In this document: piece by piece, positions 14,717-16,935 of the stretch | Numbering within the stretch: the stretch's first letter is position 1 | Layout of the letters: each line of letters opens with the position of its first letter | NCBI GenBank assembly: GCA_010093485.1 | Contig: MU001505.1 | Location: forward strand, 647,375 to 711,374 | Direction of reading: 5' to 3' | DNA length: 64,000 nucleotides | Source of the DNA: Karstenula rhodostoma CBS 690.94 | Lineage: Eukaryota; Ascomycota; Dothideomycetes; Pleosporales; Didymosphaeriaceae | The notes under the pieces: model-generated | The model's input: only the letters and a program-made list of their open reading frames with translations | Told to the model about the DNA's origin: nothing | Databases searched by the model: none | Position numbers and translations under genes: made by a program

Positions 14717-15638
14717 CTACCCCCAACGACCCCCGTGCGTCTCGCCCCCTCCCATGCCCTCCACCGCCGGCCTCTCCTTCACCCTCCCCTTCGTCCAATC
14801 CCACGTCTTCGACATCTCCACCCCAACCTGCACCTCCCTCTGCCACGCATAGAACCTCTCGTGCCCATAGCACATCCTCCACGCATCGAAATCGGGCCAC
14901 GGCGTACTCTGCCCTTCCACGTACTCCCACACCACCATGTTCAAGCTCGGCTGGCACGTCAGCGCATCCAGCAAGACGCCTACGCAGTGCGAGCGGTGCG
15001 CGGCGACCATCTTGGGCAGGTTACCCTCGGGGCCGTACCGCGGCGCGTAGTAGTGGGAGTAGAAGGCGAATTTGCGCAGTTCGTCGAGGCAGTGGAGGAG
15101 GTGCTGGCCGTCGTTTACGGCAAAGTATTTGTTGGGGCCGTGGCCTGCGTACATCTCAGTCTAACTTGCTTTGCGAGAGCATGTAGCATGGCTTACCGAA
15201 TTCTTCGGGGATGCCAACGACGTAGTCTGGGTCTTTACCCAGTTTGACGACATCCTCGCGGGAGATGGCGAGGACGGGGGTGTCGGCTATTTCTTCCCAT
15301 GCGGCGTCGACGGCGGGCGAGGGGTCGTCTTTGTAGATGCTGTAGGGGGTGTTGAAGAGGCTTGCGTTGTTTTTGGTTTTGACAAAGGAGATGGGGAAGC
15401 GGTCGAGGAGGGGGGTGTAGGTGTTTGTTTTCTTGAGGAGGTAGTTTGGTGAGGTGGTGTGGTGGGCTGTCCAGAGGAGGGTGGAGAGGAAGATGAGGTT
15501 GAAGAGGAAGAAGAGGGCGTTGAGATGGGACGTGACATTTCGCCGTGCGCGGGATGGGGGGGTTGTGTGGGAGAGGTCTTCGGTGGAGTCGGCCGCGGCG
15601 ACCTGCTCATATTTTGGAAACCGGCTGAGCCATTTCAT
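14717..15638 (-). CDS. UstYa-family protein (DUF3328), putative RiPP oxidase/cyclase (289 aa)
   Basis: Two exons, 15638-15197 and 15144-14717, separated by a 52-nt intron; 289 residues. Residues 1-39 are a hydrophilic cytosolic segment, and 40-58 (ALFFLFNLIFLSTLLW) a single membrane anchor. The lumenal domain carries both family signature motifs HxxHC: HLLHC at 162-166 and HRSHC at 197-201, followed by a 'DFDAWRMC' block like the CRD(F/Y) segment of the family. UstYa/UstYb are copper-type oxidases that cyclise Tyr-containing core peptides in ustiloxin, phomopsin and related dikaritin pathways; other members modify different secondary metabolites. The neighbour 1 kb away, divergently transcribed, is a Kex2-repeat precursor (16668), which fits such a role. 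Only one UstYa homologue is visible, while several dikaritin clusters carry two or more. Family assignment is firm; the reaction is inferred. Confidence 0.88.
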
Positions 15639-16667
15639 CTTGATACTGATGCGTTGGTAGGGAAGACTGGATAGTCAAAGACCGCCGAAATGTACTTCAA
15701 GATGTTCTCAGATGCCGGCACGCTCAAGCGTCTGTTTTCGCCCCTTCCATGAGCTAAGCCAAATATCGCACTGTTGGTACCGAGACGTCTATGCCTCCAT
15801 CGCCTGCTATCTACCACTAGTGTAATACGGACGAGCTTGCTACATAAGGTAAATAGGTTGCAAGTGTTGTATCTTGCATATGTGTGTTTGCGTGGTCTAC
15901 ACGAGGCAACTTGGGTTAGTTTATGCCGTCAGCTCCTAGTTCGGAAGGTAGCAAGGCCTACACTACGCGGGCGTTGGTCGCAAGACTATAAAAGTGTGGG
16001 GCAAGAGCTCATACGATTAAGCTCGATATGGTATATAGAAGGTAGGATGCGATAGTTCGACCCTGTCCAGCCACTTACGGCCGTATAAAGGAATGTTCGA
16101 GAGTGTGAAGAATCTCTACAAGAGATGTATGCTGGAGTAGTTATATGTGGAGTATGAAACTCCTTGATTGGACCGTGGGAGACTACAACAAACTCCCTTC
16201 GTAACCGCAAAACTGGGTCACTGTGAGATGCAGGCATACAATGTGCCATGCAGATGATGCATTGCCACGAGGCTCAGAAGACTAGCTCTAATCCTTTGCA
16301 GGGGCTTTCTGTGAACAGTGGTGACTGAGGGCTATGTGTGTGCAAGGATCCCGAAGGGCCTGGTTGGCGGTACGGATAAGAGACGCATATGTCGGGATAG
16401 GTTCCCGGTCAGCGGGCTTTGAGAATGGCTACGCACAAAGGCAACTCAGTCAAGACAGGAAGGTAGAGGAACGGACTCGGCACACAGCATCGTATCCACC
16501 AAGTAAACCCATCAATGGCATGCTGGTTTCACGCGTGGATGGACAACCGAGTCTACGCGGTGTAGCCTGCGAATCCACGGAAGAACCCTATAAAGGCTGG
16601 TGAGTATGAGTATCCGAGCAGCAACTCTTCACTGAGCCATCCACCCCAAGTCCAACACCCTATCACC
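15639..16667. promoter_or_regulatory. Divergent intergenic region between UstYa-like gene and peptide precursor
   Basis: 1,029 bp with no gene seen. TATAAA lies at 16589-16594, about 75 bp upstream of the precursor start codon. A shared upstream region would allow joint control of precursor and modifying enzyme. Confidence 0.5.
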
Positions 16668-16935
16668 ATGAAGTTCTCCGCTCTTGCACTGCTGTCTGTC
16701 GCCACTCTGGCGGCGGCAGCCCCAATCAGTAAGTTTCCGCACTTGTGCTGGTTACAAAAAGGTGGTTCTGATCTTCTCAGACGACAAACGTACTGAGGCT
16801 GAAGTTCAAGCATACGCTCGCGGTGACGGTGCGCCGCTGGGATTCAAGATCAACAAGCGGGACGCTGAAGCTCAAGCGTACACCCGCGTAGATGGTTCCC
16901 CGCTGGGGTTCAAGATCAACAAGCGCGAGGAGTAG
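16668..16935 (+). CDS. Kex2-processed repeat precursor (candidate RiPP or pheromone-like peptide), 71 aa
   Basis: Two exons, 16668-16728 and 16781-16935; the 52-nt intron (GTAAGT...CTCAG) interrupts codon 21. Residues 1-18 are a clear signal peptide ending AAA, then PINDKR. Lys-Arg pairs fall at 23-24, 46-47 and 68-69, releasing two peptides. Each ends in a nearly identical 14-residue block: YARGDGAPLGFKIN (32-45) and YTRVDGSPLGFKIN (54-67). The blocks are preceded by X-Ala-rich spacers (TEAEVQA; DAEAQA) resembling Ste13-type trimming sites. The chain ends with Glu-Glu. This matches Kex2-processed repeat proteins, which include dikaritin RiPP precursors and alpha-factor-type pheromones. The UstYa-like neighbour favours RiPP; each block has the Tyr that dikaritin cyclisation uses. 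Against an ordinary alpha pheromone: no Trp, Cys or Gly-Gln-Pro. The peptide function is unproven. Confidence 0.82.

What the first reader, a model, noticed from the sequence alone, without database searches (positions are those of the whole stretch)
14717..16935. Candidate minimal RiPP locus: UstYa-family protein divergent from a Kex2-repeat precursor
Seen: a DUF3328 protein with a membrane anchor and both HxxHC motifs (162-166, 197-201) starts 1,029 bp from a divergently transcribed 71-residue secreted precursor with two nearly identical blocks bounded by Lys-Arg. Known: dikaritin RiPPs (ustiloxin, phomopsin, asperipin, epichloecyclin) are made from Kex2-processed repeat precursors and cyclised at Tyr by UstYa proteins. 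Inference: this pair makes a modified peptide based on the Y-(A/T)-R-(G/V)-D-G-(A/S)-P-L-G-F-K-I-N block. I do not recognise this core as any described RiPP. The locus is unusually small: one UstYa, and no visible methyltransferase, peptidase or P450.
Basis: partly seen in the sequence, partly recalled or inferred. Interest (0 to 1): 0.9.

Follow-up and report, generated by a model that had tools for sequence, protein, structure and literature searches.

The report
Small fungal modified-peptide gene pair
Two neighbouring fungal genes, one for a secreted repeat peptide and one for a copper-type oxidising enzyme, probably work together to make a small modified peptide with an undescribed core; the kind of system is already known.

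Summary
In detail: splicing gives a 71-residue secreted precursor with two 14-residue blocks (11/14 identical) before Lys-Arg, and a divergent 289-residue UstYa protein with both HxxHC motifs, 1,029 bp apart. The pairing is more than chance. In Kalmusia sp. IMI 367209 the two homologues bear consecutive locus tags, N0V90_008126/008127. In this genome 7 of 27 UstYa places examined carry a Kex2-repeat precursor, each with a UstYa divergent from it. The Kalmusia precursor interleaves the FKIN core with a second core, STYAPLWYVGGL, whose relative here (9 of 12 residues) belongs to another divergent UstYa pair. The main rival, an unmodified alpha-pheromone, is weakened: two pheromone-like genes lie elsewhere. 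Most likely this is a dikaritin-like RiPP cassette: Kex2 releases Y-x-R-x-[DE]-G-x-x-L-G-FKIN and UstYa oxidises it, probably at the invariant Tyr. Modification itself was not tested. 'Unusually small' is only partly right: published loci with one UstYa exist, and such pairs recur here. New member of a known kind.

The parts
16668..16728 (+). precursor exon 1 (signal peptide)
   Evidence: splice search; hydropathy
16729..16780 (+). precursor intron, GTAAGT...TCTCAG
   Evidence: same position in homologues P0001/P0027 (my reading)
16781..16935 (+). precursor exon 2 with both cores, Lys-Arg sites and stop
   Evidence: homologues
16813..16854 (+). core 1, YARGDGAPLGFKIN
16879..16920 (+). core 2, YTRVDGSPLGFKIN, behind KR-DA-EA-QA
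15197..15638 (-). UstYa-family gene exon 1 (with membrane anchor, about 15524-15465)
   Evidence: Pfam PF11807
15145..15196 (-). UstYa intron
14717..15144 (-). UstYa-family gene exon 2 with stop; HLLHC at 15103-15089 and HRSHC at 14998-14984
15639..16667 (.). 1,029-bp region between the two divergent start codons

Best explanation
A two-gene, dikaritin-like RiPP cassette. Shown by sequence: signal peptide, two near-identical cores before Lys-Arg sites, and a divergent membrane-anchored UstYa/DUF3328 protein with both HxxHC motifs. Inferred: the precursor enters the secretory route; Kex2 cuts behind Lys-Arg, Kex1 trims the basic pair and a Ste13-like peptidase trims X-Ala dipeptides, leaving Y-x-R-x-[DE]-G-x-x-L-G-F-K-I-N. 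The UstYa protein, a binuclear copper oxidase facing the lumen, oxidises this peptide, most likely at the invariant Tyr. By analogy with ustiloxin and phomopsin (Tyr joined to the Ile of Y-x-I) the near-invariant Arg of Y-x-R is the partner to test first. The product is secreted; its role is not known.
For: Kalmusia precursor holds FKIN, TYAP, TYAP, FKIN cores in that order; the TYAP-type core here sits in a separate divergent UstYa pair on C4. 7 of 27 UstYa places examined carry a Kex2-repeat precursor, each divergent from a UstYa, gaps 0.6-2.9 kb; 0 precursors in the other 60.5 kb of the window. Of 8 repeat precursors found by a pattern search, 3 lie beside UstYa, p about 6e-6; without the window 2 of 7, p about 5e-4. 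Tyr 11 of 11 and FKIN-K 11 of 11 repeats in five proteins. Both HxxHC motifs intact here and in 14 of 22 database hits. DUF3328 proteins are binuclear copper enzymes (PMC12435403, passages).
Against: No mass or expression data. Only two repeats. The X-Ala spacer of block 2 is called absent from cyclic-toxin precursors in PMC6339444 (passages), though C4's UstYa-paired precursor has such spacers too. The databases gave 22 UstYa hits but only 5 precursor hits, so most UstYa homologues have no known partner; short genes are easily missed. The Ascochyta rabiei homologue P0011 has lost one motif His (HRSSC). Kalmusia adjacency could be plain synteny; its flanks and orientation were not seen. 6 of the 22 hits show neither motif (truncated or misread models by my reading) and P0025 only one.
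Confidence: 0.72

Rival explanations
1. The precursor yields an unmodified secreted signalling peptide, processed by Kex2, Kex1 and Ste13 like an alpha-pheromone, and the UstYa gene is only a neighbour kept by synteny.
For: Block 2 follows KR-DA-EA-QA, and P0001 has KR-EA-DA-DA-EP; PMC6339444 (passages) regards such spacers as typical of pheromones or hormones. A G-x-P-L-G string recalls the Pleosporales pheromone motif PYG[LM]P[IV]G (same passages).
Against: Two better pheromone-like genes lie elsewhere in this genome, with W..GF[KR]RLPGQPIG repeats, and the one Ste2 receptor found does not call for a third ligand. PMC7329392 (passages): 3 of 216 putative pheromones and 0 of 227 yeast-type factors had a DUF3328 neighbour. 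The core is shared with a UstYa-paired core in one Kalmusia precursor.
Confidence: 0.2
2. The UstYa protein modifies some other substrate encoded elsewhere, and the precursor is matured by a different enzyme.
For: About 43 UstYa groups in the genome, many without a precursor found nearby (20 of 27 places), so UstYa proteins may work in trans or on other substrates.
Against: Kalmusia adjacency and the repeated divergent layout.
Confidence: 0.06
3. The repeat is a chance reading frame and no gene.
For: No Pfam match and no homologue with a named function.
Against: 0 of 20,000 shuffles; FKIN-K kept in 11 of 11 repeats of five proteins; consensus splice sites and a signal peptide.
Confidence: 0.02

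Closest known systems
Asperipin-2a cluster (aprA, aprY, aprR, aprT)
   Same: Kex2-type precursor next to a single UstYa-family enzyme in a small cluster (PMC6514808, passages)
   Different: Asperipin core is FYYTGY and the cluster also has a reductase and a transporter; none of these was seen among the ten neighbouring frames scanned here
Ustiloxin and phomopsin clusters (dikaritins)
   Same: Repeat precursor with Tyr cores, UstYa-family enzymes; Tyr is followed at i+2 by a near-invariant residue
   Different: Cores YAIG/YVIG/YVIP with Ile at i+2 instead of Arg; several UstYa genes and a tyrosinase (PMC7329392, passages); here one UstYa and no tyrosinase seen
Epichloecyclins (gigA cluster of Epichloe)
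   Same: Kex2-type precursor, one DUF3328 gene, small cluster of four genes (PMC7317419, passages)
   Different: Repeats of 27 residues and cluster includes kexB and another gene; sequence of the cores not compared here
Alpha-pheromone precursors of Pleosporales
   Same: Signal peptide, Lys-Arg sites, X-Ala spacers before the repeat
   Different: Core differs; this genome has its own pheromone-like genes elsewhere; a DUF3328 neighbour is very rare for pheromones (PMC7329392)

Membership tests
Kex2-processed repeat protein (KEP) | secretion signal | tested here: met
   hydrophobic N-terminus, maximum at residues 5-17; no signal-peptide program was available
Kex2-processed repeat protein (KEP) | near-identical repeats separated by Kex2 sites | tested here: met
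   two blocks, 11/14 identical, each before Lys-Arg; the 2019 survey asked for at least three repeats (PMC6339444), which this does not reach
Dikaritin-type RiPP | UstYa/DUF3328 protein with two HxxHC motifs | tested here: met
   AlphaFold2 model of homologue P0006 puts both motifs on helices 163-177 and 195-213 behind a helix at 32-64, mean pLDDT 56
Dikaritin-type RiPP | repeat precursor gene close to the UstYa gene | tested here: met
   1,029 bp; consecutive locus tags in Kalmusia
Dikaritin-type RiPP | Tyr in the core | tested here: met
   11 of 11 repeats
Dikaritin-type RiPP | tyrosinase, methyltransferase and peptidase or transporter in the cluster (original five-gene definition) | tested here: not met
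   none among ten neighbouring frames scanned; not every frame of the window was scanned; later definitions drop this requirement (PMC12048977, passages)
Dikaritin-type RiPP | side-chain oxidised or cyclised peptide product | not testable with these tools
   needs mass spectrometry
Alpha-pheromone precursor | Ste13-type X-Ala/X-Pro spacer behind the Kex2 site | tested here: inconclusive
   block 2 fits (DA-EA-QA), block 1 does not (TE-AE-VQ)
Alpha-pheromone precursor | pheromone core (PYGxPxG, PGQPIG or two-Cys type) | tested here: not met
   core is YxRx[DE]GxxLGFKIN; PGQPIG and CRFPGMPC cores lie in other genes

The most novel reading that the evidence does not exclude
The fungus carries a set of minimal, divergent UstYa/precursor cassettes whose cores have been shuffled between precursors in evolution (two cores in one Kalmusia precursor, two separate cassettes here), and the enzyme of this cassette makes a Tyr-to-Arg (i, i+2) side-chain link in the Y-x-R motif, a crosslink that I do not recall from any described dikaritin.
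Probability: 0.15. Interest if true: 0.65.

Novelty: new member of a known kind. Interest (0 to 1): 0.45.

Why it matters
It adds a core family, found in one named and several unnamed sources, that a survey asking for three or more repeats (PMC6339444) would miss. It offers a natural substrate-choice experiment: homologous UstYa enzymes stand beside a one-core-type precursor here and a two-core-type precursor in Kalmusia, so one can ask which residues such an enzyme reads. Seven divergent UstYa/precursor pairs with different cores in one genome suggest that minimal two-gene cassettes are a common form of fungal RiPP locus.

Tried and rejected
Alpha-pheromone reading: taken seriously because of the DA-EA-QA spacer and the G-x-P-L-G string. 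A pattern for PYG[..]P[..]G found no match in the genome; a looser G-x-P-x-G-KR pattern gave five hits, none in a repeat frame; the KR[DE]A[DE]A pattern then led to the pheromone-like genes.

Paralogue of the precursor in the same genome: none; the only matches were its own two exons. Solved structure of a UstYa homologue: none; best match of P0006 was E=0.8 to an unrelated isomerase. No fold search was run, because the model's mean pLDDT was 56. A first script on the pattern loci printed nothing because of a wrong file name and was redone.

Limits of the counts. Eight of the 26 fetched loci had flanks of only about 1.5 kb, so 7 of 27 is a lower bound. Of 35 KR[DE]A[DE]A hits, 30 came as loci and were read, one more lies in L001, four were not read; calling 8 genes repeat precursors was partly by eye. 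The random control is small: 60.5 kb of window, 22.0 kb in seven loci, two of which overlap, two arbitrary 7-kb stretches, and shuffled sequence; all held none. Alignments of the window UstYa to nine other UstYa loci of the genome gave a match in seven (25-34%) and none in two.

Full report
What is there. Both genes are as described. The precursor needs one 52-bp intron removed and then reads MKFSALALLSVATLAAAAPINDKRTEAEVQAYARGDGAPLGFKINKRDAEAQAYTRVDGSPLGFKINKREE; the UstYa gene also has one 52-bp intron. The UstYa match is strong (E=1.8e-40), the HxxHC motifs lie at 162-166 and 197-201, and the starts are 1,029 bp apart, divergent. The two blocks are 11 of 14 identical, which 0 of 20,000 shuffles reached.

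Where it lies. The window is part of an unnamed 44.3-Mb genome in 29 contigs with 59 UstYa profile matches, 43 groups by my merging. The UstYa protein is closest to a Paraphaeosphaeria sporulosa protein (81% over 83% of the query), then to unnamed sources, Bimuria and Kalmusia, so the fungus is probably in or near Didymosphaeriaceae (inference). Ten neighbouring reading frames were scanned against Pfam: two short-chain dehydrogenases, an aldehyde dehydrogenase, Med18, PNK3P, a fungal transcription-factor domain, chorismate synthase and RhoGAP; two had no match. No tyrosinase, methyltransferase, peptidase or P450 was among them; the other frames of the window were not scanned.

Homologues of the precursor. 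A single-sequence search gave P0001, P0002 and P0003; an alignment search added P0026 and P0027. Eleven repeats from five proteins (window, P0001, P0002, P0003, P0026) give [AGS]-Y-x-R-x-[DE]-G-x-x-L-G-F-K-I-N-K-R: Tyr 11 of 11, Arg 10 of 11, Asp or Glu 11 of 11, FKIN-K 11 of 11. Repeats within a protein are not independent. P0027 was left out, as it holds only the signal exon.

Linkage. Orientation and flanks in Kalmusia were not seen. Other UstYa loci of the window's own genome are only 25-34% identical where they align at all (seven of nine tried), so P0009 is the likely orthologue (inference).

A second, linked cassette. The KR[DE]A[DE]A pattern led to a precursor on contig C4 with four ATYAPLVY[TV]GGL cores and KR-DAEAD spacers, signal peptide MKVSILSLLASLAAAAPLP and an intron just behind it. 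It starts 1.27 kb from a divergent UstYa match with HQLHC and HMDHC. The Kalmusia precursor carries, in order, one FKIN core, two STYAPLWYVGGL cores and one FKIN core; the second core agrees with C4's in 9 of 12 residues. Two core families that are separate cassettes here are interleaved in one precursor there, beside the homologue of the window's UstYa. I regard this as the strongest evidence that the FKIN core belongs to the UstYa-paired class.

How often it happens. A detector for repeated 8-residue tails before dibasic sites was run on 26 other UstYa loci (154.6 kb); six hold a precursor: C18 (QWYDITYVD), C5:64k (DASSYA), C4 (above), C12:770k (DSDDVWLW), C1:1721k (AFP[TDG]WIK) and C5:480k (TEFAPWYRATNILPASDE). 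The C12 and C1 cores have no Tyr. With the window this makes 7 of 27 places; 20 of 27 showed none. In each of the seven a UstYa is divergent from the precursor, with gaps of 1.03 kb (window), 0.96, 0.64, 1.27, 1.14, 2.86 and 1.54 kb, measured for the others from the UstYa profile match; at C18 a second UstYa lies downstream in the same direction. The detector found nothing in the other 60.5 kb of the window, in seven further loci and in shuffled sequence, or in two arbitrary 7-kb stretches. Of eight repeat precursors found through the pattern, three lie beside UstYa (p about 6e-6; 2 of 7 without the window, p about 5e-4). The other five do not: AVRGSN repeats on C17, two W-G-K types on C5 and C16, and two pheromone-like genes.

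The pheromone rival. Block 2 follows KR-DA-EA-QA, a Ste13-type signature that the 2019 survey calls typical of alpha-pheromones and absent from cyclic-toxin precursors (PMC6339444, passages). But this genome has its own pheromone-like genes: on C14 near 1512.7k four GW[HQ]SGFKRLPGQPIG repeats, and on C15 near 1553.3k two GW[HQ]SGFRRLPGQPIG repeats with three NCRFPGMPCS peptides. One Ste2 receptor gene was found. Pheromone precursors almost never have a DUF3328 neighbour: 3 of 216 and 0 of 227 (PMC7329392, passages). And since C4's UstYa-paired precursor has KR-DAEAD spacers too, such spacers do not exclude UstYa modification in this fungus.

Mechanism. The DUF3328 enzyme CctR is a membrane-anchored binuclear copper oxidase with the HxxHC pair on paired helices (PMC12435403, abstract and passages). 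The AlphaFold2 model of the homologue P0006 shows a helix at 32-64 and both motifs on helices 163-177 and 195-213, at low overall confidence (mean pLDDT 56.4). In ustiloxins and phomopsins Tyr is joined to Ile in Y-x-I cores (PMC7329392); the matching position here is Arg. A Tyr-Arg link is therefore my specific, untested prediction; hydroxylation or another oxidation would fit the enzyme family as well.

Novelty. Pairs of Kex2-repeat precursors and DUF3328 genes are a known, common kind: 1,758 of 7,878 (PMC7329392). One full-text search for six peptide strings returned no paper; that library lacks most subscription journals. So this is a new member of a known kind, with the exchange of cores between cassettes as its most interesting side.

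Noticed in passing
L034/L035 (G000:C14 near 1512.7k, minus strand) and L037 (G000:C15 near 1553.3k, minus strand): Two alpha-pheromone-like genes in which every pheromone repeat is split by its own intron at the same place (4 of 4 and 2 of 2 repeats, introns 49-55 bp; splicing guided by a pattern). The C15 gene mixes the PGQPIG type with the two-Cys type NCRFPGMPCS.
   Followed up: partly
L001/L050 (C18), L002 (C5:64k), L048 (C4), L052 (C12), L053 (C1), L058 (C5:480k): Six further divergent UstYa/Kex2-repeat precursor pairs with unrelated cores.
   Followed up: partly
L041 (G000:C17 near 311k): Kex2-repeat precursor with 18 detected AVRGSN-type repeats, no Tyr in the core, no UstYa match within 270 kb.
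   Followed up: no
P0011 (Ascochyta rabiei ST47_g136): Homologue of the window's UstYa in which the second motif reads HRSSC instead of HxxHC; it may be inactive or altered.
   Followed up: no
P0005, P0006, P0007, C-termini: His-rich tails such as GHGGHGGHGGH in several homologues of the window's UstYa.
   Followed up: no
window about 29360-29720: A stretch that reads as X in translation, so unresolved or withheld bases.
   Followed up: no
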